Positions 2-16,080 of a stretch of 33,750 nucleotides of DNA are shown piece by piece. The number at the start of each line of letters is the position of its first letter. The first letter of the stretch is position 1. Position numbers and translations under genes: made by a program. Under the pieces are notes generated by a model. The model had not been told where the DNA came from and searched no databases. It saw nothing but the letters and a program-made list of their open reading frames with translations. Location: positions 1 through 33,750 of IMG/VR virus record IMGVR_UViG_3300033429_000013; one strand, given 5' to 3'. This DNA is from a virus.

Positions 2-337
2 TTTTTTATGAGCTTAATGAATTCAAATATAAAAAGAATATGCGTAGAAAATCCCGTTGGATATATGAATACTTCTTTTAGGAAACCAGACCAAATCGTA
101 CAACCCTACTATTTTGGAGATACGGAACAAAAAAGAACTTGTTTATGGTTAAAAAATTTACCATTACTAAACAAAACTAACGTAGTTACCCCAAAAATAC
201 ATTGGATCAGCAAAAAGGGAAACCCTGTATACTTTACTGAAGCTTTAGTAGGCTCTAAACATAGGTCTGCCAAACGAAGCAAAACATTTCCAGGGATCAC
301 AAAAGCTATGGCTAACCAATGGAGTATGTTTTTATGA
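2..337 (+). CDS. DNA cytosine methyltransferase-like protein, C-terminal part (5' truncated by window)
   Basis: The reading frame is open to the left edge (the codons before the ATG at 8 are Phe-Phe), so the visible part is the C-terminal half of a longer protein. It matches my knowledge of a small phage family annotated as cytosine-methyltransferase-like. The diagnostic stretch is CVENPVGYMNT, then a KPDQIVQPYYFGD segment and a TCLWLKNLPLL segment. The ENP triplet corresponds to motif VI (ENV) of C5-cytosine methyltransferases. The N-terminal S-adenosylmethionine-binding motifs and the PC catalytic motif would lie outside the window, so activity cannot be judged. The stop overlaps the next gene's ATG (ATGA), which suggests translational coupling to the UDG-fold gene. 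The family call is fairly confident; the biochemical role is inference. Confidence 0.8.
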   Translation, partial: FFMSLMNSNIKRICVENPVGYMNTSFRKPDQIVQPYYFGDTEQKRTCLWLKNLPLLNKTNVVTPKIHWISKKGNPVYFTEALVGSKHRSAKRSKTFPGITKAMANQWSMFL

Positions 338-1448: not shown

Positions 1449-2714
1449 ATGATTGATCATCACAAAGCATTGATTGCACCAATCCGTGTGTTTCGTCATC
1501 CTAATGCAGATAGAGTTCAGTTAGGGATAGTATCGGGCTTTCAAGTAATTGTAGGTATGGAAGTAAAAACCGGCGACATCGGTGTCTATTTCCCGGAAGA
1601 TACAGTTATAGGAAAGGATTATGCAGAAAAAAATATGGATTTACTTGAATATTTTGAAAAGAATCTAAGAGTACGTACACAAACTTTCAGAGGGCAGAAG
1701 TCAGAAGGATTTTGGGCACCTTTGGAAACACTATATGATGTACTCTCGCCTATTGATTACTATTTAGAAGAAGGAAATACTCTCGGTGTTGTGGGAACTA
1801 AAGAAATATGCAAAAAGTACATTAATCCAGAAACGGAACGTGTGAGACAAAGGGCAGGACTCAATAAAAAGTTAAGTAATAAACAATTACCAAACTTTAG
1901 AAAACATTTTGATACCGAACAAGTAAAACTTAATTGGAAACATATTAATAAATTAATTGCTGATGGTATTCCAGCAATTTTAACCTGGAAACTACATGGA
2001 ACTAGCGCAAGGACCGGAAACGTATTAGTACCGAAAGTATTACCTTGGTATAAAAGATTACTTAAAGGATTAGGAGTTAATATTGAAACGAATGAATATA
2101 GGTATATTATTGGATCTAGAAACGTAATGTATCTTGGAGACGCGGAGGATGCTTGGTATAATAACGAGATTCGTACAAAAGCAGCCAAGCCCTTCATCGG
2201 TAAGTTATTTGATAATGAAGTAGTTTACTATGAAATCGTGGGCTATCAGCCCAATGGTAGTTCGTTATTTTCTCATACAACCACTCATATTAAAGATAAA
2301 AAGATTAAAAAACAATTAAAGAATTTATTTGGCGATAAGTTTGATTATTCTTATGGGTGTGAACCTGGAGAGTTTAAAATATTCGTTTATAGAATAGCGA
2401 TGGAGTATCCTAATGGTATAATTATTGATCGTACATGGGATCAACTCAAACAACGATGCAAGGATATGGGAGTAGAACACGTGGTAGAAATCCCACATAA
2501 GTATAAATTATATGATATTAATCAAGATTTTCTTGATATGATAAATAGTGATATTGTTGATCCAATAGATGATCGTCATGTAAAAGAAGGAGTATGTTTA
2601 CGATTCGATGATCCACTAAATCTAGTAATTTTTAAAGATAAAACTTATACATTTAAGTTACTGGAAGGTATTGTTAAAGAACAAAATGTGGTTGATATTG
2701 AGGAGGCTGGTTGA
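1449..2714 (+). CDS. RNA ligase (Rnl5 / DraRnl-like, N-terminal OB-like domain)
   Basis: 421 residues. Residues 1 to about 125 resemble the OB-like domain of Deinococcus-type RNA ligases (ALIAPIRVFRHPNADRV near the N-terminus, then GVYFPEDTVI). The nucleotidyltransferase core follows, with catalytic motif I KLHGT at 181-185 (Lys181 would carry AMP), motif III YYEIVGY at about 260-266, motif IV EGVCLRF at about 380-386, and motif V around residues 396-405 (lysines at 396, 398 and 403). The domain order fits the DraRnl/Rnl5 group, which seals nicked or broken RNA with ATP. In a phage a likely job is repair of tRNA cut by host anticodon nucleases. The 3' end runs into the SD of the next gene. 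The ligase call is strong; the substrate is inferred. Confidence 0.88.
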   Translation: MIDHHKALIAPIRVFRHPNADRVQLGIVSGFQVIVGMEVKTGDIGVYFPEDTVIGKDYAEKNMDLLEYFEKNLRVRTQTFRGQKSEGFWAPLETLYDVLSPIDYYLEEGNTLGVVGTKEICKKYINPETERVRQRAGLNKKLSNKQLPNFRKHFDTEQVKLNWKHINKLIADGIPAILTWKLHGTSARTGNVLVPKVLPWYKRLLKGLGVNIETNEYRYIIGSRNVMYLGDAEDAWYNNEIRTKAAKPFIGKLFDNEVVYYEIVGYQPNGSSLFSHTTTHIKDKKIKKQLKNLFGDKFDYSYGCEPGEFKIFVYRIAMEYPNGIIIDRTWDQLKQRCKDMGVEHVVEIPHKYKLYDINQDFLDMINSDIVDPIDDRHVKEGVCLRFDDPLNLVIFKDKTYTFKLLEGIVKEQNVVDIEEAG

Positions 2715-2715
2715 T

Positions 2716-2931
2716 ATGACTGAGCAATTTGAAGTAGAGGATTCTACTTACAGACTGAACACAATACTTGGAGACACAAGAGACGTATCTGAAGATATAC
2801 GATACGAAGCCGGTACCGACCTGCACACCATTCAAAAGTTGTACCTAGCCGCAGAACTTCTAGATGAGGCGGTATCGAAATTAAAAGATGCTCATACACA
2901 GTTACACTCTAGCATAGACTTGGTACAATAA
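2716..2931 (+). CDS. Hypothetical protein, 71 aa, acidic, helical
   Basis: Not recognised. The start is the ATG at 2716, chosen because a strong AGGAGG lies about 10 bases upstream inside the end of the ligase gene and the ATG follows the ligase stop by one base. The C-terminal half is a predicted amphipathic helix with regular Leu/Ala spacing (KLYLAAELLDEAVSKLKDA), suggesting a helical dimer. No membrane segment or metal motif. Confidence 0.65.
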   Translation: MTEQFEVEDSTYRLNTILGDTRDVSEDIRYEAGTDLHTIQKLYLAAELLDEAVSKLKDAHTQLHSSIDLVQ

Positions 2932-2932
2932 A

Positions 2933-3154
2933 ATGTCATTAACTTATGAACCGGATATGTATACAGATTACCAACACCATGTATATAAATATATAGGTAA
3001 TATGGGCGGTAACGTTTGGCTAGGCAGTATAAATTTTATACCTAATAAAAATAAAGTAGTATTTTACAGCGGATCTGATAGCGAGGATTGGAGTATATCC
3101 GAATTAAAAAATCTAATCAAACATATGAAGAAATTAAAAAAGGAAAATAAATAA
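2933..3154 (+). CDS. Hypothetical protein, 73 aa
   Basis: Not recognised. It begins one base after the previous stop. The N-terminal half is rich in Tyr and Gly (HVYKYIGNMGGNVWLG) and looks beta; the C-terminus is a lysine-rich helix (NLIKHMKKLKKENK). Its stop overlaps a following ATG as TAATG. Confidence 0.6.
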   Translation: MSLTYEPDMYTDYQHHVYKYIGNMGGNVWLGSINFIPNKNKVVFYSGSDSEDWSISELKNLIKHMKKLKKENK

Positions 3155-3222
3155 TGTCTGACGAAGAATTTGGAGGTATTGCTTCTCGTATACAGGAATT
3201 TGAAAATGAACACAATATATAA
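3154..3222 (+). CDS. Possible 22-aa acidic micropeptide
   Basis: An ATG shares its A with the preceding TAA stop (TAATG), an arrangement used repeatedly in this genome for coupled translation. The frame runs 22 codons and encodes an acidic helix-like peptide starting MSDEEFGG. It ends inside the next gene. It may be real, or may only carry ribosomes to the next start. Confidence 0.35.
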   Translation: MSDEEFGGIASRIQEFENEHNI

Positions 3223-3415
3223 TATACCTAACGAAACAGTAACAATATATGATTTTGATAACGTTATATATAATCTAAAAAAACAAGGTATATTTACAAA
3301 ATCATGGGAATTTATATTTGATTTAATTGTTTTATTTAAAGAACATAATTTTCATGATTTTTATAAAAGTAAATATTATGATGAGTTACCCAATAACGCA
3401 AAGATGGTGCATTAA
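3206..3415 (+). CDS. Hypothetical protein, 69 aa
   Basis: Not recognised. The ATG at 3206 is preferred over an upstream TTG at 3170 because an AGGA lies about 9 bases before it and the earlier residues look unlike a protein start. Content is high in Phe, Tyr, Asn and Ile, with a DFDNVIYNLKKQG segment. Soluble alpha/beta prediction; no motif. Confidence 0.55.
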   Translation: MNTIYNIPNETVTIYDFDNVIYNLKKQGIFTKSWEFIFDLIVLFKEHNFHDFYKSKYYDELPNNAKMVH

Positions 3416-3730
3416 ATGAATAGAGATATTGAATTCACGTACTCAATAGAGATACTTGCTAAAGATATTACGGATGATATAGCAGCATCCATAGATTCAC
3501 TCAAGTTATCTCGTCATAGACAATTAGGTAGAGATGAGACTTATTGTTTCCACTATAAAATAGGAATTATGGACTCCTTAACTAATCTACCTATCGTAAT
3601 AAAACTTTTTAAGAAATTAGGAAAACCAATACCAAGAAGTGAACTAATTTGTCTATATGACAGGTTGGAAGAGCTGCAAACTATCGTAGTGAAGGCAATG
3701 GATAATTCACGGGATAGTTATTTTAAATAA
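3416..3730 (+). CDS. Hypothetical protein, 104 aa
   Basis: Not recognised. The ATG directly follows the previous stop. The N-terminus is a likely beta strand (DIEFTYSIEILAKDI), followed by helical segments ending CLYDRLEELQTIV. The last part resembles the C-terminus of the next small gene (a helix ending in a D-[RK]-L-E-E-L pattern), so the two may be diverged relatives, but this is too short to be sure. Confidence 0.6.
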   Translation: MNRDIEFTYSIEILAKDITDDIAASIDSLKLSRHRQLGRDETYCFHYKIGIMDSLTNLPIVIKLFKKLGKPIPRSELICLYDRLEELQTIVVKAMDNSRDSYFK

Positions 3731-3744
3731 AAAATAATTTGACT

Positions 3745-3975
3745 ATGGCAGACTATTACTTTGACGAGTGCGAAAATATGTTAGAATATAAAAAACAAGT
3801 TACAGGAAACAATAAAACAATTTATGAAGTATACAATTGTTATAATTTTTTAGGAGAGATACATAAAGTTATAGATAAATACTTTTTTTCAGCTAATGAA
3901 AAAGTATTTGTTATTTACTCAGAAGCAATGTTAAGAGAATTATCTGATAAATTGGAAGAATTAAATAAACAATAA
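3745..3975 (+). CDS. Hypothetical protein, 76 aa
   Basis: Not recognised. The ATG at 3745 is preferred to a TTG at 3739. The protein is acidic and Tyr/Asn-rich and ends in a helix containing LSDKLEELNKQ. It lies 19 bases upstream of the ribonucleotide reductase start and is probably in the same transcript. Confidence 0.55.
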   Translation: MADYYFDECENMLEYKKQVTGNNKTIYEVYNCYNFLGEIHKVIDKYFFSANEKVFVIYSEAMLRELSDKLEELNKQ

Positions 3976-3984
3976 TTACTGATT

Positions 3985-3990
3985 AGGAAA
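3985..3990 (+). promoter_or_regulatory. Ribosome binding site that fixes the TTG start of the reductase
   Basis: AGGAAA lies 4-6 bases before the TTG at 3995. No ATG occurs in frame until about residue 49, which would remove conserved N-terminal sequence, so this site supports the non-ATG start. Confidence 0.55.
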
Positions 3991-3994
3991 CCTA

Positions 3995-6067
3995 TTGAAT
4001 AATAAATCACCATTAGAAACAGATTATCAAAAATATATACATTTATCTAAATACTCACGATGGAATTACGAGAAGGAACGTAGAGAGACTTGGGAAGAAA
4101 CTGTATGGAGATGGTGTAGATATTGGTATGACAAGGAAATGATTACTTTTATGGAGGCATTAGAATTTTTTGAGGTTATACATAATCTTGAAGTTATGCC
4201 TTCTATGAGATCTTTGATGACTGCCGGTCGTGCTCTTGACGTTGATAATATGGCAGGATACAATTGTTCATATTTAGCAATTGAAGGAAAGGGAAAAGAA
4301 TATGAATTAACTCATCAAGATTTAGATGAAAAAGTAACGATTGCTATGAAGTCTCCTGTAGACTTCGATGAGTTACTGTATATTTTAACTTGCGGTACAG
4401 GAGCAGGATTTTCAGTAGAACGACAATATATAAATAATTTACCTACTATTGGTAAAGTATTATCTAGACATATCTGTAGACGAACTAATCATAACTATCC
4501 AGGAGTAGTAAAAGATGACTTGTCACACATCAGTAGAAGCAAAAATGAGATTATTGTCGAAGACTCGAAATATGGGTGGGCATCAGGACTCAGAATCCTT
4601 ATCACGGAATTGTACAACGGTAATTTCGAGATCAGATGGAACTTACATAAGATTCGCCCCGCAGGTGCCATCCTTAAAACATTTGGTGGTCGTGCCTCTG
4701 GACCAGACCCACTACATCAGTTATTCAGATTTGTAAAAGAATTATTTATAAAAGCAAATGGAAGAAAATTAAACTCGCTAGAAGTACATGATATATGTTG
4801 TAAGATTGCTCAAGTTGTTGTGGTGGGGTCTGTACGTCGTTCTGCTCTTATATCACTTTCTAATCTATCCGATATACGAATGAGAGAAGCTAAATCAGGA
4901 GAATGGTGGAGAGAGGAAGGGCAACGAGCATTATCAAATAATTCGGTATGTTATACTGAAAAACCAGATATAACTATTTTTATGGAAGAATGGTTATCGT
5001 TAATGAAATCTGGTAGTGGTGAGCGTGGTATATTTAATAGATATTCTGCTAAGAAGAAGTTAGAAAAACTACCTCGTAGAAAAGTGTATGAGGTTGGTGT
5101 AAATCCTTGCGGTGAAATATTATTACAATCAAATCAAGTATGCAATTTAAGTGAAGTAATTATAAGAGAAAATGATACATATGAAACATTACAACGTAAG
5201 GTATATTACGCTACAATATTTGGTACATTACAATCAACCTTAACTGATTTTGTATATTTACGTCCTATATGGAAACAAAAATGTGAAGAAGAACGGTTAT
5301 TAGGAGTATCGTTAACTGGTATTATGGATAACAAATCAATGAGTAACAATTCTATTTTTGTAGAAGGAGACGGAGAAGAATCTATTACTAATGTAACTAC
5401 AACTATTTTACCTTTACTGAAAGGACAAGCAATAGAAACAAATAAAAGATGGGTGAATCGATTAGGTATTAATCAATCTACTGCAATCACAACCTGCAAG
5501 CCCAGCGGAACCGTGTCACAACTAGTTAATAGTTCCTCCGGCATACATCCCAGATTTAGTAAATATTATTTACGTACTGTCCGTGCTGATAAAAAAGATC
5601 CATTATCTAAATTTATGGTTAATTCCGGGATATATCATGAGGACGACGTAACTAATAAAGATCAATCATATGTATTTTATTTTCCAATTAAATCACCTGA
5701 GGGAGCAATACTTGCCGATGAGGTATCCGCCCTTGACCAATTAGAGTTGTATGAACAATATTCCAACAATTGGACAGAGCATTCAGTATCTATTACAGTA
5801 TATGTAAAGCCGGACGAATGGCTAACCGTAGGCTCTTGGGTATATGAAAACTGGGATGATATTACAGGAGGATTGACATTCTTACCATATTCTGAACATG
5901 TATATGAGCAGGCACCTTATCAGCAAATTACTAAGGAAGAATATGAAATATGGTTAAGGAAATCCCCTTCTAATATAGATTGGAGTACCTTATCCGATTA
6001 TGAAAAAGAAGATTACACTGTGGCTAGCAGTGAACTAGCTTGCACTTCAGGAGTATGTGAATTATGA
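3995..6067 (+). CDS. nrdJ: Adenosylcobalamin-dependent (class II) ribonucleotide reductase, monomeric type
   Basis: 690 residues from a TTG start; the well-studied Lactobacillus leichmannii enzyme is 739. It reduces ribonucleotides (triphosphates in that enzyme) to deoxyribonucleotides using a thiyl radical generated with coenzyme B12. All expected cysteines are present: Cys91 (GYNCSYL) and Cys383 (QVCNL) as the reducing pair, Asn370-Pro-Cys372-Gly-Glu374 as the radical-site motif, and a C-terminal CTSGVC (Cys683/Cys688) that shuttles electrons from thioredoxin. The Cys372-Cys383 spacing of 11 equals that in the Lactobacillus enzyme (408/419). CGTGAGFS (about 133-140), VGSVRRSALISL (about 278-288) and TTCKPSGT are also conserved. 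No B12 synthesis gene is visible, so cobalamin must come from the host. The stop overlaps the next ATG as ATGA. Confidence 0.96.
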   Translation: MNNKSPLETDYQKYIHLSKYSRWNYEKERRETWEETVWRWCRYWYDKEMITFMEALEFFEVIHNLEVMPSMRSLMTAGRALDVDNMAGYNCSYLAIEGKGKEYELTHQDLDEKVTIAMKSPVDFDELLYILTCGTGAGFSVERQYINNLPTIGKVLSRHICRRTNHNYPGVVKDDLSHISRSKNEIIVEDSKYGWASGLRILITELYNGNFEIRWNLHKIRPAGAILKTFGGRASGPDPLHQLFRFVKELFIKANGRKLNSLEVHDICCKIAQVVVVGSVRRSALISLSNLSDIRMREAKSGEWWREEGQRALSNNSVCYTEKPDITIFMEEWLSLMKSGSGERGIFNRYSAKKKLEKLPRRKVYEVGVNPCGEILLQSNQVCNLSEVIIRENDTYETLQRKVYYATIFGTLQSTLTDFVYLRPIWKQKCEEERLLGVSLTGIMDNKSMSNNSIFVEGDGEESITNVTTTILPLLKGQAIETNKRWVNRLGINQSTAITTCKPSGTVSQLVNSSSGIHPRFSKYYLRTVRADKKDPLSKFMVNSGIYHEDDVTNKDQSYVFYFPIKSPEGAILADEVSALDQLELYEQYSNNWTEHSVSITVYVKPDEWLTVGSWVYENWDDITGGLTFLPYSEHVYEQAPYQQITKEEYEIWLRKSPSNIDWSTLSDYEKEDYTVASSELACTSGVCEL

Positions 6068-6231
6068 CTACAAATAACATAAACGAACAACCAAACATAA
6101 ACAAAATTTTACAACAAATCATATCTGAATTGGAGAAAAATCTTTCTTTGAGTGTAGACGATTGGGAGGAAGGATTTGATGTAGGAATACGAGAAGCACT
6201 TGTTATTGTAAAAAAATATGAACAAAAGTGA
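6064..6231 (+). CDS. Hypothetical small protein, 55 aa
   Basis: Not recognised. The ATG overlaps the reductase stop (ATGA), and the frame fills the space to the HNH gene, overlapping its start by 14 bases. An N-terminal Asn/Ile-rich part precedes an acidic helix with VDDWEEGFDVGIREAL near residues 31-45, reminiscent of many small phage proteins with a GxREAL helix. Translational coupling makes it likely to be real. Confidence 0.6.
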   Translation: MTTNNINEQPNINKILQQIISELEKNLSLSVDDWEEGFDVGIREALVIVKKYEQK

Positions 6232-6661
6232 TGGGAGGATGTGTAGTAACTGTAAAGAATGGAAACCTTTTACAGACTACCACAAAAATTCTGCTAGACA
6301 TACTTTGACGGATTCCTATTGCAAAAAATGTAGACGTACCGTAAATAATAAGTGGAGGCGTACTAATACCGTAGGCAACTTGTTACATAAGTCCAAAGCT
6401 AGAGCAAGACTTAAAAATATAGAACATACTATTACTAAACAAGATATTATACTTAATGATATTTGTCCCATACTTAACGTACCTTTAGAATATGGTACAC
6501 CTTATTCTCCTTCTTTAGATAGGACAAACAGCTCTAAAGGTTATATTCCGGGCAACGTTCAAGTAGTATCATGGAGAGCAAATACATTGAAGAATAACTC
6601 CACACTTACCGAACTTAAACAATTAGTAACATATATGGAGAATATTGAAAACAATGGTTAA
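6218..6661 (+). CDS. HNH-type endonuclease with N-terminal zinc-binding cysteines
   Basis: 147 residues. Two Cys-x2-Cys pairs (Cys9/Cys12 and Cys35/Cys38) form a probable zinc site. The C-terminal half carries SPSLDRTNSSKGYIPGN (about 97-113) followed by VQVVSWRANTLK, the diagnostic stretch of a common phage HNH family that starts its nuclease domain with a CP(V/I)LN segment (83-87). It cuts DNA and could be a homing-type nuclease or take part in recombination or packaging. The family often appears beside nucleotide-metabolism genes as a mobile intruder, but here it sits in its own slot after an intact reductase gene. Start at 6218; an in-frame ATG at 6239 is possible. Confidence 0.85.
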   Translation: MNKSDGRMCSNCKEWKPFTDYHKNSARHTLTDSYCKKCRRTVNNKWRRTNTVGNLLHKSKARARLKNIEHTITKQDIILNDICPILNVPLEYGTPYSPSLDRTNSSKGYIPGNVQVVSWRANTLKNNSTLTELKQLVTYMENIENNG

Positions 6662-6962
6662 ACTTACTAAGATGATCTCGTCTAATGATTTACTAGAGAC
6701 AGATATAGTGGGCGAGATTTTTATGTTTCGTTTAACGAATCGAGGACTAAACGATCACCACCAAATTGTAAGTATTTATATGGAGGATGATGAGTTCTGG
6801 CATCTAAAACAAGTCATCTCCTCCTATTGGTTGGATGATTTATTAGAAGTAATTAATAAAACAAAACAAATATTAAACAATAAAAATAAGTACGAAAAAA
6901 TTAAATATGGTTACAAAAGAATAGAGACTGCAAATGAGAAACAAGAAAGCAAAACTGATTAG
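6654..6962 (+). CDS. Hypothetical protein, 102 aa
   Basis: Not recognised. The ATG at 6654 (overlapping the end of the HNH gene by eight bases) is preferred over a TTG at 6645. The N-terminal half has strand-like segments (VGEIFMFRL, QIVSIYME) and the C-terminus is a basic lysine-rich helix. It ends in TAG. Confidence 0.55.
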   Translation: MVKLTKMISSNDLLETDIVGEIFMFRLTNRGLNDHHQIVSIYMEDDEFWHLKQVISSYWLDDLLEVINKTKQILNNKNKYEKIKYGYKRIETANEKQESKTD

Positions 6963-7092
6963 AAAACTTGTAAATAAACATTTAGATTTTACTAATACAA
7001 CTTATAAAAAAGATAATAAAGGAACTATTACATTAAATTTTGATTGTACTCGTGCAGTATATCAACGAATGAAACGTGTCTTTAAGCAATAA
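6934..7092 (+). CDS. Small basic conserved-type phage protein, 52 aa
   Basis: It overlaps the end of the previous gene by 29 bases in another frame. Basic N-terminus (RNKKAKLIRKLV), a central GTITLNFDCTR strand segment, and a C-terminal RAVYQRMKRVFK. This pattern of basic N-terminal helix plus C-terminal Arg-Ala-x-Tyr-Gln-x-Met-Lys recurs in small phage proteins I have seen, whose function is unknown. The basic character suggests nucleic-acid binding, which is inference. Confidence 0.6.
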   Translation: MRNKKAKLIRKLVNKHLDFTNTTYKKDNKGTITLNFDCTRAVYQRMKRVFKQ

Positions 7093-7117
7093 TAACTTAA
7101 ATAAAAAGGTATAAAAT

Positions 7118-7519
7118 ATGAGAATAGGTATTTTTGGTAGTCGGAATATTACAGAGTTTGATGTAGGAGCTGTCTTAGAAGATATAAATATAGATATGGA
7201 GGGCAGTATATTTTTATTAGGAGGAGCAAAAGGAGTACAAGCTATTATCAAGGATTATCTAGATGAGTATAAAGATCGTTATGGTAAATGTCTATACATA
7301 TTATTCAAGCCATGGCATCTAGTCAACACTAAGTTAGCCTTCAACACTGATTTATTTTTCTATCGCAATAAACAAATTATACAAAATTCGGATCTTGTTG
7401 TTGTTATTAGAAAATATGATGAGGAAGATGACTCGGAAATATTAGGAGCACTATCTTACGCAGGTCGTTTAAACAAAGAAATCACCACAATGGATCTTCG
7501 AGACTACACAATAGCATGA
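7118..7519 (+). CDS. SLOG / YspA-like Rossmann-fold nucleotide-binding protein
   Basis: 133 residues. N-terminal strand and loop RIGIFGSRN (2-10), a glycine-rich GGAKG loop at 35-39, and RNKQII (83-88) followed by SDLVVVI (91-97) are the order expected of the SLOG superfamily (DprA/LOG/YspA type), which binds nucleotides or nucleotide-derived ligands. The ligand cannot be read from sequence. SLOG domains occur in DNA uptake, cytokinin activation and as sensors in anti-phage systems; in a phage they may process or sequester a nucleotide signal. It is grouped with MazG and reductase genes, so a nucleotide-related role is plausible. A weak AAGGT precedes the start by about 7 bases. Confidence 0.78.
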   Translation: MRIGIFGSRNITEFDVGAVLEDINIDMEGSIFLLGGAKGVQAIIKDYLDEYKDRYGKCLYILFKPWHLVNTKLAFNTDLFFYRNKQIIQNSDLVVVIRKYDEEDDSEILGALSYAGRLNKEITTMDLRDYTIA

Positions 7520-7677
7520 CACAAGCACCTTACGTTAATTATATAGAGGATTTTTATCATACGTATTTATATACGTTAGATCCTTTACTTAATGAAAATT
7601 ACATGGATATTATCGCAGTACTAGGTGTATTAATAGTAGCAGGATTTATATTTATTTGTTTATATAAAGATAAATGA
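7516..7677 (+). CDS. Small single-span membrane protein, 53 aa
   Basis: The ATG overlaps the stop of the SLOG gene (ATGA). A soluble, tyrosine-rich N-terminus (about 1-30) precedes one strongly hydrophobic segment (DIIAVLGVLIVAGFIFICLY, 31-50) and a short charged tail KDK, which fits N-out/C-in insertion in the inner membrane. Function not recognised; candidates include a superinfection or lysis-related membrane peptide. Confidence 0.6.
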   Translation: MTQAPYVNYIEDFYHTYLYTLDPLLNENYMDIIAVLGVLIVAGFIFICLYKDK

Positions 7678-7678
7678 T

Positions 7679-7750
7679 ATGGAATTATTTATCTTTTTGG
7701 TATTTATTTTAGCGATAATACGATATTTTTACAATCAACGAGAGAATTAA
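7679..7750 (+). CDS. Possible 23-aa membrane micropeptide
   Basis: Starts one base after the preceding stop. About 14 hydrophobic residues (LFIFLVFILAII) are followed by a charged tail with Arg, Tyr and Asn. The hydrophobic run is long enough for a short membrane helix. There is no clear ribosome binding site, but tight packing between two genes and a good ATG make it worth listing. Confidence 0.4.
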   Translation: MELFIFLVFILAIIRYFYNQREN

Positions 7751-7753
7751 TTT

Positions 7754-8086
7754 ATGAACCTCAAAGAATATAATAACTTTACTAAAACTACTGCAATTTA
7801 TCCGGAAGCTGGTTCTGGTAACCTAAACGAAGTTATGTATTTAACGTTAGGACTATCGGGAGAGGCAGGAGAGATTTCAAATAAAGTTAAGAAGCTATAT
7901 AGAGATGGGAATTCTTCTGGGAACAGACAGCAGTTGTCCGGAGAGTTAGGAGACGTATTTTGGTATCTAATTAGATTATGTGATGTACTCAAATTAGATC
8001 CAGAAATGGTTATGTTGAATAATGTAAATAAACTAACCAGTCGAAAGAACCGTAATGTATTAGGTGGTAGTGGAGATACTAGGTAA
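7754..8086 (+). CDS. MazG-like nucleotide pyrophosphohydrolase
   Basis: 110 residues, the size of a single-domain all-alpha NTP pyrophosphatase. The metal-binding motif is clear: Glu37-x2-Glu40 in GLSGEAGEI and Glu64-x2-Asp67 in ELGDVFWYL, followed by the usual KLTSRKNR and a terminal GGSGDTR. The enzyme removes pyrophosphate from nucleoside triphosphates; in phages it may clean the dNTP pool or lower host alarmone levels. Its place between the reductase and Thg1-like genes supports nucleotide metabolism. The exact substrate cannot be told. Confidence 0.9.
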   Translation: MNLKEYNNFTKTTAIYPEAGSGNLNEVMYLTLGLSGEAGEISNKVKKLYRDGNSSGNRQQLSGELGDVFWYLIRLCDVLKLDPEMVMLNNVNKLTSRKNRNVLGGSGDTR

Positions 8087-8099
8087 TTATTAAATTGAT

Positions 8100-8336
8100 A
8101 TGAATATTTATAAATTTTCGGTAGATCAACACAGGGGCACATATTATGTCTGTAACCGACCAGGAGATAATTCAGGACAATATATAAATTTTGATGAATT
8201 AAATAATTACATACAAGATAAAATATTCGAAATTCAAAAAGAAGCAGATAGGAATATGATAGAAGTATCTACATTTAGAGTGGGTCAACTAGATATATTA
8301 AAAGAACTTATTTCAAATTGTCGTGACATTAAATAA
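8100..8336 (+). CDS. Hypothetical protein, 78 aa
   Basis: Not recognised. The N-terminal half is strand-like (IYKFSVDQHRGTYYVCNR), and the second half a long helix containing NNYIQDKIFEIQKEAD. Soluble, roughly neutral. It starts 13 bases after the MazG stop without a strong ribosome binding site. Confidence 0.55.
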   Translation: MNIYKFSVDQHRGTYYVCNRPGDNSGQYINFDELNNYIQDKIFEIQKEADRNMIEVSTFRVGQLDILKELISNCRDIK

Positions 8337-8340
8337 TATT

Positions 8341-8640
8341 ATGAAATCTACAAAATTTGATAAAGAAATATTAAAAGATTTAGCAGATTGTTTAGTTGGA
8401 GATGAACCTATTGAATATGACGGCGACTTTTACAAACTTGTGGAAAATGACATAGCGGATCGCGGAAGGTGGACTATTACATATGAAATGGTATTTAAGT
8501 ATAATGATGATTTCTATAGGACTTACTATAATATAGGTGCTACGGAACAACAATACGAAAGTCCTTTTGAATATGAAAATGATTTAATTAAGTGTAAAAA
8601 AGTAAACCGAGTAGAAAAAACAATTATAGTCTATGAATAA
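8341..8640 (+). CDS. Conserved-type phage hypothetical protein, 99 aa
   Basis: The ATG at 8341 is preferred to a GTG at 8323, which lies in the previous gene. The pattern RRWTITYEMVF-like core (here GRWTITYEMVFKY, about 45-57), then FYRTYYNIGATE, PFEYE and a closing VEKTIIVYE is one I recognise from a widespread small phage protein of unknown function. It is probably a compact beta-sandwich. No catalytic motif is evident. Confidence 0.65.
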   Translation: MKSTKFDKEILKDLADCLVGDEPIEYDGDFYKLVENDIADRGRWTITYEMVFKYNDDFYRTYYNIGATEQQYESPFEYENDLIKCKKVNRVEKTIIVYE

Positions 8641-8839
8641 TATACATGAAGTTGTAAAAAGTATTGTTTCCCTTAATATATATTATGTATATACAAAATA
8701 TGACGAGGGGAATTACAAATATCTTAGAGCATCTCCAGAGTTATGGATACAAATAACAGATGAATTATCTTGGGTTGTTTCAGACGCAGAAGAATTGGAA
8801 AGACTTGAAAATATATATAACAATTTTTTCTTAGAATAA
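8633..8839 (+). CDS. Hypothetical protein, 68 aa
   Basis: Not recognised. It overlaps the preceding gene by 8 bases. Acidic; begins with a helix or strand (EVVKSIVSLNIYYVYTKY) and ends with an acidic helix (DAEELERLENIYNNFF). It ends five bases before the Thg1-like gene. Confidence 0.55.
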   Translation: MNNIHEVVKSIVSLNIYYVYTKYDEGNYKYLRASPELWIQITDELSWVVSDAEELERLENIYNNFFLE

Positions 8840-8844
8840 AATTA

Positions 8845-9546
8845 ATGATGACTTTAGCAGATAGAATTAAACGATATGAACTTGTAACTCATCACCATCT
8901 TACTCCGAAAGTACCAGTAATTATACGAGTGGATGGAAAAGCGTTTCATACCTTCACTAAACACATGAAACGACCCTTTGATCCTAATTTTATGAATGCA
9001 ATGGTAGAATCTGCAATAGAAACAGCAAAACAGCTACAAGGATTCAGGGTGGGGTATGTGCAGTCGGATGAAGTTACTTTCTACTTGACAGACAACAATA
9101 AAATAGATAGCATTATAGGAAGAGTGGTAGAAACACAAGGATGGTTCGGCTATGATCTATCCAAACTAATATCAATATCTGCTGCAATAATGTCGGCCGA
9201 GTTTTCCTCTTATTTTAACGAAACCGCAGTATTCGATAGTAGAGCATTTAATATACCAAGACATGATATTGTAAATACACTCCTCTGGAGGGCACAAGAC
9301 TGGCATAGGAATAGCTTACAAATGTATGCTGCAACTTATTTCTCCACAAAAGAATTACATAGAAAGAAAAGAAATGATATACATAAGATGTTGCATAGTA
9401 TTGGCAAAAATTGGAGTACTGATTTATCTGATAGAGAAAAGAATGGAACTTTCTTAGTTAACGAAGATAATTTTATACATGTATATTATCATATAAAACC
9501 TACATATTCATCAATAGATGACGCAATTGGAGAACATATTATATAA
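8845..9546 (+). CDS. Thg1-like 3'-5' nucleotidyltransferase (tRNAHis guanylyltransferase family)
   Basis: 233 residues; the start is one of two tandem ATGs (8845 or 8848). Thg1 enzymes add nucleotides in the reverse 3'-5' direction to the 5' end of tRNA. Metal ligands are conserved: IIRVDGKAF with Asp30, and VQSDEVTF with Asp75-Glu76, matching Asp29 and Asp76-Glu77 of the human enzyme. Also typical are VFDSRAFNIP (about 129-138) and WRAQDWHRNSLQM (148-160). The last aligns with the HINNLYN motif of eukaryotic Thg1 and keeps the His and one Asn but differs elsewhere, as expected for a Thg1-like protein that repairs truncated tRNA rather than only adding G-1. With the RNA ligase it suggests a tRNA repair set. 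It is the last + strand gene. Confidence 0.93.
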   Translation: MMTLADRIKRYELVTHHHLTPKVPVIIRVDGKAFHTFTKHMKRPFDPNFMNAMVESAIETAKQLQGFRVGYVQSDEVTFYLTDNNKIDSIIGRVVETQGWFGYDLSKLISISAAIMSAEFSSYFNETAVFDSRAFNIPRHDIVNTLLWRAQDWHRNSLQMYAATYFSTKELHRKKRNDIHKMLHSIGKNWSTDLSDREKNGTFLVNEDNFIHVYYHIKPTYSSIDDAIGEHII

Positions 9547-9549
9547 TAT

Positions 9550-9684
9550 TTATTTCTTTTTATTTTTAAAATATTGTACTTGACGTTCACGTTTGGCTGC
9601 TCCTGCTTTAGAGTGGGAGCAGCCTAAGTTACGTTTAGTTTTCTTACTTTTAAGACAATAACCTTTTTTAGTTTTTGTAATCAT
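9550..9684 (-). CDS. Small, very basic hypothetical protein, 44 aa
   Basis: The ATG shares its A with the stop of the upstream gene (TAATG), the same coupling used at other junctions of this operon. The product is dominated by Lys and Arg with only one acidic residue, holds two Cys and one His (CLKSKKTKRNLGCSH), and continues with KAGAAKRERQVQYF. The charge suggests RNA or DNA binding. It ends 3 bases from the convergent + strand gene. A 9-bp inverted repeat lies inside it and encodes GCSHSKAGAA. Confidence 0.6.
   Translation of the reverse strand: MITKTKKGYCLKSKKTKRNLGCSHSKAGAAKRERQVQYFKNKKK
9595..9624. terminator. GC-rich hairpin at the convergence of the two arms (possible bidirectional terminator)
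   Basis: A perfect 9-bp inverted repeat, GGCTGCTCC / GGAGCAGCC, with a 12-base loop. It is the most GC-rich spot nearby and lies where the + and - operons meet. No U-run follows on either strand, so it is not a classical intrinsic terminator. It also falls inside the 44-codon gene, so the repeat may be coding coincidence. Confidence 0.35.
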
Positions 9685-13200: not shown

Positions 13201-16080
13201 TCTATTTGGATCTTCTGCTAGGTTGGCAATGTATTCCTTAACGGCAGTGCGCCTATCCTCTATTTTAGAAGTATCTATCTTATAAATACTTTCAATCTCG
13301 CCTAATAATTTATCATTTTGTAACATAAAATAAGATCTATCTAAAAATGGATTTAAATCTTTTGGTTTAAATAATTGATAAAATCCATGGTGACCTATCA
13401 ATTCATGGGAAACTAATCGTTCTAAATCTTGTACAAAACCTTTTTTTTGTAAGTTACCACCAACTATATGAATCGTATTTGTATCGTTATTTATATAACC
13501 TCTAACATTATTAAGATCTATTTTTTTAAATTCTATATATTCAAGATCTGATTCGGGTAACGTATTAGTATTTTCATGATATATTATTTTAACATCTGAA
13601 CCGGTTATACGTTTATTTAACTTATTTAGTTTTGCTCTTGCAAAGGTATGCTGTTGTCCTGTAATAGCAGGTTTAGAAGTATCTGCTTGTGTATCTGTAG
13701 GTATTCCTTCGGTTCTGGAAAGATTAACATTAGGAGTAGTACTTGTGGGAGCATTGGTGGATATATTAGATATATTATCTGGATCTTCTTGTACTGGAGG
13801 AGCTTCTTGTGCTGGTGGAATATCGGTACCGAGGGCACGTTCCTCTTCTTCCAGCTCTCTTAAAAATCTCTCAAGTTCCTCCGAAATAGGAGGTTCTACT
13901 CCTTGGCCAGGTACTAGGGTAACTTCTTGCTGCCCTGGAGCAATAATAGGAGTCAAGGTAGATACCTCTTCCTCAGGAAGAGTTCCTACTTCCTCTTCAA
14001 CGACCCCTGATGCATCTGGCACAGTCTGGAACTCTTCCGGTATACTCTCTTGCTCTTGTTGTTGGGCCGCTTCTATACGAGCACCGCTAACTGGTGCTAG
14101 TTCTTCTTCCTGTATCTCATCTACCTGAGTACCAGGTAGCTCTAGAGTCTGAGTAGATACTATATCACGATACTTATCCTCAATAACTTGAGTTTCATTT
14201 TTAGCAACAAGGAATCCAGCAAGTCTGGTGCCGGATAATGATTCTTCTATCTTATTGAGATTTAATAACTTAGTATTATTAAATTTATTATAACCGGTTT
14301 TAAATTGTTTCCAATCGCCTTTAGTTGCTTTTAATTCGTTATTTTGTACTTGTGTATAAAACTTATCGAATATTTCTTTTTCTTCGTTAGTAGAATCTAC
14401 TGCATTTTTTGTTTTTATATAATCCGGTTCAGTAGATAATACTTCTGCGGAAGCTTCTTGCTTTGCTAAAGCTGCATCTTCCTCTGCTATTCTACCTTCT
14501 CTTGCCGCTGCTGCTTTCTCTTGAGATTTTATAAAATTTTCTTTTTCTTTTTTAATAGCACCCATAGTACGCTTATGGCTGGTATCTACTAAACCTTCCC
14601 TTTGTTTCTTTATACCTTCTTCTTGTGCTTTACGAATAGCTTCTTGAGTTTTCTCATCTAGTAAACGAGCCTGTTTAGCATCCTTGTAACCTTGTGCTTT
14701 CTGTCCTTTAAATCCTTTCGATGACTTATTATTTCTGAATGCATCGTAGCCTTTGTTATAAGCTTCCCAATCCTTAGCTACGTTCGGTTGCTTGCCTGTT
14801 CCTCTAGCTTCTTCCAGCGTAGGTGTATACGAATTAATAAAACGTTGAAATGCGGGATCATCATTATCTTGTATGTTAAGTTCTTCTTTTAAACTAACAT
14901 ATAGGCGTCTATCTGTAACTTCTACCGGACGTTCTTCTGGATTAGCAGATAATGTATTACCTCTTTTTGTGGCCTCTGCTTGGTCGAATGCACGGTTAAA
15001 CTCTGTTTCTTCTGCTGCGACAGATTCTTGTTCTGCTAGGGCAGCCTCTTGCTCAGCTACAGCAGCCTCTTCTTGCTCTATACGCTGTACTTCTTGCTGA
15101 ACTCTCGCCTGTTCTTCTTGTTGAATACGTATGCCACGCTTGGCACCTAACCATCCCGTTACCGCTCCTAGGATAACACCTACTCCACCACCGGCAGCAG
15201 CCGATTCCTCCAGTTGGTCAAATAATTTACGTTCTTGATCAAAGTTTGCTTGTGCATACAAATTCATTAAGGTGTTCTGTGCACCTTCTTGTAATGCCTC
15301 TGAAGCACCCTGAGCCGCAGCACCTTTGCCTATCCCTTTTATTATTTCATTTTTACGTTTCCCTACCTTTTTAGAGGCTTCTTTAGCCAGTTCTTCAAAC
15401 TTATCTCTACCTACAAAACCTCCACGTTTGGCCAAACTGTATAAAGGCAGCATTTCGGAAATACCAATAACACCTCCCCAAAAAGCTGCCTTACTCTTTT
15501 CTTCCGCAGTAGCAACTCTTCCTTGTTCCAGTCTAGTCTGTTCTAGATCTCTCTTTAATTCCTTCCCGCCCAAACCAAATCCAGATGCTCCTGTGGTTAG
15601 TGTAGCACCTCGACCAAAAGATTTTTCTTTTAATTTACTTATGGTTTTTGCTGTCTCAATAGTAGGTTTAGCTGCATGAGCAGCTTTTGCGGCTTTAGCA
15701 GCTTTGCCGCTAGCCATTAAAGCTCTTCCAGCTACACCACCCACTCCACCGCCTACAAACATCCCTCCTACTTGACCTATACCACGGGCGATCTGCCCAC
15801 CCAATGACTTGGAGAACTCAGGATCAACCTCTCCAATAACATCATCTTCAAGAAAATCACCAAAATCTATTCCTGCCTGTTCTATAGTTTTAGAACCAAC
15901 CAAAGCACCTAACGTTTCAGGCAAAGCAGACACGGTTTCAGCAGCACCAGCACCTACTGTTTTACCTATTTTTTCATATAAAGGAGCAGATGCAAGTTTC
16001 TCTTTACGAATCCTTCCACGTAGAGTATCTACAGCTTCAGGAGTTTCCGCAGATAAAAAGTCCTCAAGTAATGTGGTCAT
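10246..16080 (-). CDS. Giant polyvalent virion protein, 1944 aa, with zincin-type metallopeptidase motif
   Basis: Three parts can be seen. Residues 1-315 hold several Gly/Ala-rich hydrophobic stretches (such as GGMFVGGGVGGVAG, and AAAGGGVGVILGAVTG before 315) and a helix EALQEGAQNTLMN, typical of internal virion proteins that cross membranes at ejection. Residues about 318-800 are E/Q/K/A-rich, coiled-coil and low-complexity linker. Residues about 830-920 form a zinc-peptidase-like domain with His892-Glu893-Leu-Ile-Gly-His897-His-Gly, the HExxGHxG motif of metallopeptidases in phage polyvalent proteins. The C-terminal third is helical with NPPTHFVN at 1470-1477 and a hydrophobic PFITFPYKVFPIMV stretch near 1660, resembling LPD38-type polyvalent regions. 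It is probably ejected with the DNA. It overlaps the upstream gene as ATGA. Domain names rest on motif recognition only. Confidence 0.82.
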   Translation of the reverse strand: MTTLLEDFLSAETPEAVDTLRGRIRKEKLASAPLYEKIGKTVGAGAAETVSALPETLGALVGSKTIEQAGIDFGDFLEDDVIGEVDPEFSKSLGGQIARGIGQVGGMFVGGGVGGVAGRALMASGKAAKAAKAAHAAKPTIETAKTISKLKEKSFGRGATLTTGASGFGLGGKELKRDLEQTRLEQGRVATAEEKSKAAFWGGVIGISEMLPLYSLAKRGGFVGRDKFEELAKEASKKVGKRKNEIIKGIGKGAAAQGASEALQEGAQNTLMNLYAQANFDQERKLFDQLEESAAAGGGVGVILGAVTGWLGAKRGIRIQQEEQARVQQEVQRIEQEEAAVAEQEAALAEQESVAAEETEFNRAFDQAEATKRGNTLSANPEERPVEVTDRRLYVSLKEELNIQDNDDPAFQRFINSYTPTLEEARGTGKQPNVAKDWEAYNKGYDAFRNNKSSKGFKGQKAQGYKDAKQARLLDEKTQEAIRKAQEEGIKKQREGLVDTSHKRTMGAIKKEKENFIKSQEKAAAAREGRIAEEDAALAKQEASAEVLSTEPDYIKTKNAVDSTNEEKEIFDKFYTQVQNNELKATKGDWKQFKTGYNKFNNTKLLNLNKIEESLSGTRLAGFLVAKNETQVIEDKYRDIVSTQTLELPGTQVDEIQEEELAPVSGARIEAAQQQEQESIPEEFQTVPDASGVVEEEVGTLPEEEVSTLTPIIAPGQQEVTLVPGQGVEPPISEELERFLRELEEEERALGTDIPPAQEAPPVQEDPDNISNISTNAPTSTTPNVNLSRTEGIPTDTQADTSKPAITGQQHTFARAKLNKLNKRITGSDVKIIYHENTNTLPESDLEYIEFKKIDLNNVRGYINNDTNTIHIVGGNLQKKGFVQDLERLVSHELIGHHGFYQLFKPKDLNPFLDRSYFMLQNDKLLGEIESIYKIDTSKIEDRRTAVKEYIANLAEDPNRNLPLWKRVIAKFRHLLRKLGLVNLSDNDIRDMLMTAGDRLGLNVDPTSGSQRAQTQEQQDIDFSLNTNIDTNISLAEQKQQESKDMPTRLRQSAVGGFMNDINNFQETFSTFTPATTKQRARSVIDTDLKQGWWQNYVDRLAEATKELSPIQALTTYGNVRGIEDYKRIRGMALGIKHPFESVAEDLRKIMIDRKGPITAAQLEELSNYYRTEGVDVNTLSFLTEKEREITEKSKQRMRELEALLISLGGLNADRVAALRGATGELYMPRLFMEYMLDPETRNVRGGKRLSPRDWMKKRDSDLTDEHIKALRVIEDPRILAISHLSVVGKDAALLQMFNQMQENGEGVWLWSSPNLEAEGQAKKFAGDQTMDLVSSLRRKLKQERASRGTPNYQAFITESQNMEETIRNNIRNRLPEIQNLPIVQDMVNQGINMEDYIFNSMMSGEFVPLKGKQYGQLNGSFVHKSLKDDLQELAGFVAAGESPMEKMFAKGGYMDDATRIWKRLKTVANPPTHFVNMVGNWYMLDTSTSTNSLTIVKDLLGVVNETANPDKAAREFGPMTLTEIATKTGILDTSFTAAEAYKAKSLASKINELVKEVDTAQEGKLRKLQFRIAFGWRDIWDGMAELYQKEEEVFKIVKMKDYLRQWEKAHGVKLKTLYNQDKAAATQVYSRAAVEAQNSLIDYSAVPQWVRELRRTPIAPFITFPYKVFPIMVRNTLKHPIKTAQWAMVPAMMSAMMAGEDFDEDDLKKIQERYPSWSKEKLNMFMIPYKKDNGDLGVMHIDKFFPPAMFMNMVSKIANDPVELTGLQKAGEVLGSVNDLGLFAGPAIDAVAALATNKNTFTGQDIVPEFATPYEQANALAAYLGNMTMPTWLTESGFRGHVFDKTLGEELDPVTGKVTESWGQVSGRLFGVNIHTLNLQKQQQNNIKFYTNRIRKTKQVKAKVLRDRNLQANPEKQASLIKDYNIMLARFRQERNEYLQKSQ

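What the first reader, a model, noticed from the sequence alone, without database searches (positions are those of the whole stretch)
1449..9546. RNA ligase and Thg1-like 3'-5' polymerase in one phage cassette: a possible tRNA end-repair set
The + strand arm holds an Rnl5/DraRnl-like RNA ligase (1449-2714, catalytic KLHGT) and a Thg1-like protein (8845-9546, Asp30 and Asp75-Glu76). Ligases reseal nicked RNA; Thg1-like proteins rebuild missing 5' nucleotides of tRNA in reverse polarity. Together they could repair tRNAs damaged by host defence nucleases in ways that ligase alone (as in T4) cannot. No kinase/phosphatase partner is visible in the window, so the pathway would need host or off-window enzymes to heal ends.
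Basis: partly seen in the sequence, partly recalled or inferred. Interest (0 to 1): 0.72.

Follow-up and report, generated by a model that had tools for sequence, protein, structure and literature searches.

The report
Phage RNA ligase plus Thg1-like polymerase
This fragment of an uncultured phage carries intact-looking genes for an RNA-joining enzyme and for a reverse-direction tRNA end-builder; phages with the second enzyme usually also carry other RNA-repair enzymes, so the pair is most likely part of a known kind of toolkit for mending tRNAs cut by bacterial defences.

Summary
1449-2714 (+) encodes a 421-aa Rnl5-type RNA ligase: phrog_968 1e-48, best fold match Naegleria NgrRnl, nucleotidyltransferase motifs intact. 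8845-9546 (+) encodes a 233-aa Thg1-superfamily protein: PF04446 5e-27, best sequence and fold match Bacillus thuringiensis TLP, D30/D75/E76 intact. It is of the TLP (5'-repair) type rather than the eukaryotic tRNA-His Thg1 type.
The repair reading is partly supported, at family level. Of 50 Thg1-bearing viral contigs, 31 carry this ligase family, 32 a polynucleotide kinase, 30 RlaP, and 45 at least one. Of 20 random large contigs the figures are 1, 3, 1 and 4, with 0 Thg1. Thg1 genes often sit beside RlaP, kinase-HD, CCA-adding enzyme, HAD "Swiss army knife" genes or tRNA arrays. However, ligase and Thg1 are not usually neighbours, the closest Thg1 relatives include several without any of these genes, and no kinase or RlaP was found in the ~50 kb of this phage now known.
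The idea is in print (2010, 2021). This is a new member of a known kind. tRNA-His maturation and phage tRNA 5'-editing were tested and found unsupported. What cuts tRNA 5' ends during infection is still unknown.

The parts
1449..2714 (+). Rnl5-type (DraRnl/NgrRnl-like) ATP-dependent RNA ligase: N-terminal OB domain, then nucleotidyltransferase domain; motif I K181-LHG, Ia R224, III E262, IV E380-G381, V K396
8845..9546 (+). Thg1-like protein (TLP), predicted 3'-5' polymerase; D30, D75, E76 catalytic carboxylates; invariant in 42 phage homologues
3995..6067 (+). Ribonucleotide reductase (class II-like) lying between the two genes; context only
6218..6661 (+). Endonuclease VII/HNH-like protein; context only (an endonuclease VII gene also lies near Thg1 and kinase in Omegavirus Klein)
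7754..8086 (+). MazG-like pyrophosphohydrolase; context only
8323..8839 (+). Two small ORFs of unknown function (8323-8640, phrog_6343; 8633-8839) packed directly upstream of Thg1
9595..9624 (.). 9-bp G+C-rich hairpin between the convergent ends of the + arm (Thg1 is its last gene) and the - strand genes; terminator-like by position, but with no T run and not called by the terminator scan
   Evidence: read by eye

Best explanation
The phage encodes two separate RNA-repair tools of known families. The Thg1-like protein is a TLP: it activates the 5'-phosphate end of a 5'-shortened tRNA and adds nucleotides in the 3'-5' direction, using the 3' strand of the acceptor stem as template. The Rnl5-type ligase seals 3'-OH/5'-PO4 breaks. 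Both belong to a dispersed RNA-repair repertoire (with polynucleotide kinase, RlaP, CCA-adding enzyme, phosphatases and tRNA genes in related phages) that most likely keeps translation going when host RNases attack tRNAs. Shown here: identity, fold, intact catalytic residues, and co-occurrence plus neighbourhood with repair genes across phages. Inferred: activity, substrate, and the anti-defence role. End-healing would be done by a kinase/phosphatase outside the known ~50 kb or by the host.
For: Ligase and Thg1 families and folds. BtTLP, the closest solved relative, has the same D30/D75/E76 and repairs 5'-truncated tRNAs in vitro (PMC3701042, PMC6471195). 45 of 50 Thg1-bearing contigs carry ligase, kinase or RlaP against 4 of 20 random large contigs (Fisher 3e-8; 4e-6 after collapsing Thg1s at 65% identity, 0.01 at 55%). 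Thg1 neighbours: RlaP in 24 of 80 loci (16 within 3 kb), kinase-HD 11, CCA-adding 10, HAD_SAK_2 7, phosphoesterases. tRNA genes within 10 kb in 28 of 80 loci and within 750 bp in 9. In Omegavirus Klein (Thg1 52% identical) a kinase follows Thg1 two small genes later. P0001 relatives: ligase directly next to a kinase in Bacillus phage vB_BcoS-136 and 3.5 kb from one in Mycobacterium phage Chaser; XacN1 has Thg1 and ligase 4.2 kb apart plus a tRNA array.
Against: No kinase, phosphatase, RlaP or tRNA gene found in the window or the extra 16.7 kb of the same phage. Three of the closest Thg1 relatives tested (L002, L004, L009) carry none of ligase, kinase or RlaP. Ligase and Thg1 are not preferential neighbours. 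The RNR neighbour is not repair-related. The random controls are size-matched only roughly and not lineage-matched. No activity data exist.
Confidence: 0.66

Rival explanations
1. The Thg1-like protein matures tRNA-His by adding G-1, as the database names say, and the ligase is unrelated to it.
For: PHROG/GenBank name 'tRNA-His guanylyltransferase'; P0002 happens to carry a His (H154) at the position of the His of HINNLYN.
Against: The eukaryote-specific HINNLYN motif is replaced (HRNSLQM; WRQQDxxRNSIQM in phage homologues). Closest structure is a bacterial TLP. The three tRNA-His genes seen near Thg1 genes (L054, L071, XacN1) have G at -1 in the DNA. Bacterial tRNA-His also encodes G-1 (PMC3701042).
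Confidence: 0.06
2. The Thg1-like protein edits the 5' ends of the phage's own tRNAs, which would be encoded with mismatched acceptor stems as in amoeba mitochondria.
For: Thg1 genes often abut phage tRNA arrays; the DdiTLP3 precedent (PMC6471195).
Against: In 160 tRNAs near Thg1 genes, mismatches at acceptor positions 1-3 are rare: 5 position-mismatches, against 5 in 35 control tRNAs. ARAGORN may miss badly mismatched genes. No tRNA genes in this phage's known 50 kb.
Confidence: 0.06
3. The ligase works in DNA or mixed RNA/DNA nick sealing with the neighbouring DNA-metabolism genes (uracil-DNA glycosylase, RNR, endonuclease VII), and its presence with Thg1 on one arm is coincidence.
For: It lies among DNA-metabolism genes. 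From general knowledge, DraRnl-type enzymes can seal nicks in duplexes with a 3'-OH ribonucleotide. Ligase and Thg1 are not preferential neighbours.
Against: In Thg1-bearing contigs the ligase lies within 5 kb of a polynucleotide kinase in 14 of 22 contigs that have both, and ligase relatives in cultured phages sit beside or near kinases (PMC5511906).
Confidence: 0.17

Closest known systems
Bacillus thuringiensis TLP (BtTLP, PDB 4kgk/4kgm)
   Same: Same family and fold, same catalytic residue numbers (D30, D75, E76), same RNS-type motif in place of HINNLYN.
   Different: About 30% identical; bacterial chromosomal gene; this one is phage-borne and unassayed.
Rnl5 ligases (Naegleria gruberi NgrRnl, Deinococcus DraRnl)
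   Same: N-terminal OB domain then nucleotidyltransferase domain; catalytic motifs I, Ia, III, IV, V; best fold match.
   Different: Only ~16% identity to NgrRnl on the structural alignment; longer (421 vs 340 aa); substrate untested.
T4 Pnkp + Rnl1 tRNA repair
   Same: Presumed purpose: undo host tRNA cleavage.
   Different: Different ligase family, no kinase in the known sequence, and an added 5'-end polymerase.
Jumbo-phage RNA-repair repertoires (Iyer et al. 2021, PMC7824862); Thg1 with kinase and RNA ligase neighbourhoods and the anti-defence suggestion for phage 201phi2-1 (Anantharaman et al. 2010, PMC2904730)
   Same: Same enzyme classes and the same proposed role.
   Different: Here in an uncultured phage fragment with a small co-directional arm; co-occurrence is now counted against a control.
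Omegavirus (Mycobacterium phage Klein)
   Same: Closest annotated phage Thg1 (52% identity); polynucleotide kinase two small genes downstream; endonuclease VII nearby.
   Different: Klein has the kinase; no ligase of this family was annotated in the stretch read.

Membership tests
Thg1 superfamily | PF04446 catalytic domain over the curated cut-off | tested here: met
   94.9 bits vs 29.2; fold match to all solved Thg1/TLPs
Thg1 superfamily | Three metal-binding carboxylates | tested here: met
   D30, D75, E76 present and invariant in 42 homologues
Thg1 superfamily | 3'-5' nucleotide addition activity | not testable with these tools
   Needs purified protein
Eukaryotic tRNA-His Thg1 | HINNLYN motif for His-anticodon recognition | tested here: not met
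   HRNSLQM in its place; motif defined as eukaryote-specific in PMC6471195
Thg1-like protein (TLP) | Closer to bacterial/archaeal TLPs than to Thg1 | tested here: met
   BtTLP E=7e-31 vs eukaryotic Thg1s E>=1e-7; same order by fold; no tree built
Rnl5 RNA ligase | N-terminal OB module before the nucleotidyltransferase domain | tested here: met
   PF21189 7e-6, marginally under its cut-off; NgrRnl OB match; model and NgrRnl fold match
Rnl5 RNA ligase | Nucleotidyltransferase motifs I, Ia, III, IV, V | tested here: met
   K181xHG, R224, E262, E380-G381, K396 conserved
Rnl5 RNA ligase | Nick-sealing activity with 3'-OH RNA | not testable with these tools
   Needs purified protein
T4-type tRNA repair (kinase/phosphatase + ligase) | Polynucleotide kinase/phosphatase encoded with the ligase | tested here: inconclusive
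   None found in the ORFs scanned in the window or in contig G061, which extends it, but the genome is incomplete; present in 32/50 Thg1-bearing contigs

The most novel reading that the evidence does not exclude
Phages with a TLP face a host defence that removes or damages tRNA 5' ends or acceptor stems (not only anticodon loops), and the TLP is the specific counter-measure, acting in parallel with ligase, RlaP and CCA-adding enzyme so that every part of a tRNA can be rebuilt.
Probability: 0.22. Interest if true: 0.7.

Novelty: new member of a known kind. Interest (0 to 1): 0.36.

Why it matters
The natural substrate of bacterial-type TLPs is an open question. Phages that carry a TLP within RNA-repair neighbourhoods and next to tRNA arrays give a genetically tractable setting (for example Omegavirus phages of M. 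smegmatis) in which to find it, and would point to a still undescribed host RNase that attacks tRNA 5' ends. The counts here turn an earlier comparative-genomics suggestion into a controlled association.

Tried and rejected
(1) A two-gene ligase-Thg1 operon: rejected, proximity not above random. (2) tRNA-His maturation: disfavoured. (3) 5'-editing of mismatched phage tRNAs: no excess of acceptor mismatches at positions 1-3. (4) A tRNA-intron-endonuclease-like protein at 7118-7519: E=0.025, below cut-off, treated as chance. (5) Close phage relatives by DNA: none in 50,697 phage records. (6) Extending the left end with an exact 30-mer: no contig. (7) Extending the right end: L245/L246 (contig G061, 97-99.9% identical over 7.8 kb) adds 16.7 kb with terminase, portal and pentapeptide-repeat genes but no repair gene in the ORFs scanned. 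(8) Ligase-seeded contigs: 0 of 5 have Thg1, so the ligase is the more widespread partner and does not predict Thg1. (9) RNR-seeded control set: only 4 contigs found, too few to use. (10) Burroughs & Aravind 2016 (RNA damage review) is not held in the library.
Full report
What is there. Both genes are at the stated places with full-length open frames. The record is an IMG/VR virus fragment of 33,750 bp, about 30-42% G+C, with no near DNA relative in 50,697 phage records. Two other contigs are the same phage: L247 (99.95% identical over 13.2 kb) and L245/L246 (97-99.9% over 7.8 kb). The second extends the window by 16.7 kb past its right end through major capsid, portal and terminase genes. In total about 50 kb of this phage is known. 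No tRNA or Rfam RNA (window only) was found, no kinase by profile search of the extending contig, and no RlaP or phosphatase among the ORFs scanned.

The ligase. P0001 matches the RNA ligase family phrog_968 over nearly its whole length (1e-48), has an N-terminal OB domain (PF21189, marginal; NgrRnl OB) and keeps every nucleotidyltransferase motif: K181xHG, R224, E262, E380-G381, K396. An AlphaFold2 model (mean pLDDT 80) has Naegleria NgrRnl, an Rnl5-type ligase with a solved structure, as its best PDB match (3.5e-15), well ahead of trypanosome and T4 Rnl2-type ligases. The Rnl5/DraRnl-like label is therefore supported.

The Thg1-like protein. P0002 is a Thg1-superfamily member (PF04446, 5e-27). 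Its best solved relative by sequence and by fold is Bacillus thuringiensis TLP, whose catalytic residues carry the same numbers, D30, D75 and E76 (PMC3701042). The eukaryote-specific HINNLYN motif used to read the His anticodon (PMC6471195) is replaced by HRNSLQM. It is thus of the TLP type. Published in-vitro work says bacterial and archaeal TLPs prefer templated repair of 5'-truncated tRNAs of many kinds over G-1 addition. The three tRNA-His genes seen near phage Thg1 genes (L054, L071, XacN1) encode G-1 in the DNA, so phage tRNA-His maturation would not need the enzyme.

Do the two families co-occur? Of 50 Thg1-bearing viral contigs (49 of them at least 57 kb), 31 carry phrog_968 (25 with strong matches). 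Of 20 random contigs of 57-353 kb drawn by an arbitrary 14-mer, 1 carries the ligase and 0 carry Thg1: Fisher 8e-6, or 3e-4 with strong matches only. Polynucleotide kinase (phrog_505) is in 32/50 vs 3/20, and RlaP in 30/50 vs 1/20. At least one of the three is in 45/50 vs 4/20 (3e-8). Collapsing Thg1 sequences at 65% identity leaves 34 groups and p = 4e-6; at 55% it leaves 13 groups and p = 0.01 (kinase alone then 0.11). The controls are size-matched only roughly and not lineage-matched, and viral contigs can be fragments. In the other direction, 0 of 5 ligase-seeded contigs had Thg1: the ligase is common and Thg1 is the rarer addition.

Neighbourhood. Clustering all proteins within 10 kb of 80 phage Thg1 genes gives RlaP as the commonest family (24 loci, 16 within 3 kb), followed among others by kinase-HD (11), CCA-adding enzyme (10), metallophosphoesterase (9), NADAR-NAD synthase (8) and HAD_SAK_2 'RNA repair' (7). 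tRNA genes lie within 10 kb in 28 loci and within 750 bp in 9. The ligase is not a preferred Thg1 neighbour: 6 of 31 within 10 kb against about 4.4 expected. Its preferred neighbour is the kinase (14 of 22 within 5 kb). Cultured phages show the same: Klein, Thg1 then kinase; vB_BcoS-136, ligase directly followed by kinase; XacN1, Thg1, rIIA, rIIB, ligase, with a tRNA array nearby; Weasels2, RtcB, phosphoesterase, tRNA-Met, Thg1 and a '2'-5' RNA ligase'. A cautionary point: contigs with three of the closest Thg1 relatives (L002, L004, L009) carry none of ligase, kinase or RlaP.

How it most likely works. The ligase would seal breaks (after 3'-phosphate removal and 5' phosphorylation where needed). 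The TLP would restore missing 5' nucleotides on the acceptor stem. They act at different places on the tRNA and are better seen as members of one repertoire than as a two-step pathway. The damage source (a host RNase defence) is inferred. The kinase is probably in the unsequenced part of the genome, since related phages mostly carry one, but this is not shown.

What is known. Anantharaman and colleagues (2010, PMC2904730) linked bacterial Thg1 to polynucleotide kinase and RNA ligase neighbourhoods, proposed RNA repair roles, and suggested for phage 201phi2-1 a repair mechanism aimed against host defences. Iyer and colleagues (2021, PMC7824862) placed Thg1 in the RNA-repair sets of jumbo phages and called it sporadic. 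The present locus is a new member of that known kind. The additions here are the counted association, the separation of ligase-kinase from Thg1-RlaP/tRNA neighbourhoods, and the tests against tRNA-His maturation and 5'-editing.

Noticed in passing
L245:59-4843 (same phage, beyond the window's right end): Five paralogous pentapeptide-repeat proteins in a row on one strand (59-616, 665-1372, 1421-2008, 2267-2701, 4301-4843), with a similar start (MRTLSKEELKESINQH in the first three) and a conserved C-terminal block (HPWEITVYPESLAIG); possibly DNA mimics or a diversified array.
   Followed up: partly
L245:4850-8100: About 3 kb with almost no plausible coding sequence in an otherwise dense phage genome.
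   Followed up: no
L054:15097-15447: A phage contig with 24 tRNA genes next to Thg1 also carries a tmRNA gene (tag ANDFAFAA).
   Followed up: no
L048:5597-5671; L054:14405-14479 and 14924-15000; in-frame stops in L009 (Thg1) and in ligases L089, L097, L112: CUA-anticodon tRNAs (called tRNA-Pyl) and in-frame stop codons in Thg1-bearing contigs, which may point to stop-codon reassignment or to sequencing errors.
   Followed up: no
G024 (L029:4039-6399): The phrog_968 ligase is part of a 786-aa open frame in this contig; a fusion partner is possible.
   Followed up: no
window 8-337: Small protein matching the phrog_757 'DNA methyltransferase' profile at positions 115-219 only; likely the end of a gene cut by the window edge, or a stand-alone domain.
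   Followed up: no
P0002 residue 154 (window 9304-9306): P0002 has a His at the place of the HINNLYN His, unlike most phage TLPs (Thr, Glu or Ile); probably coincidental.
   Followed up: partly
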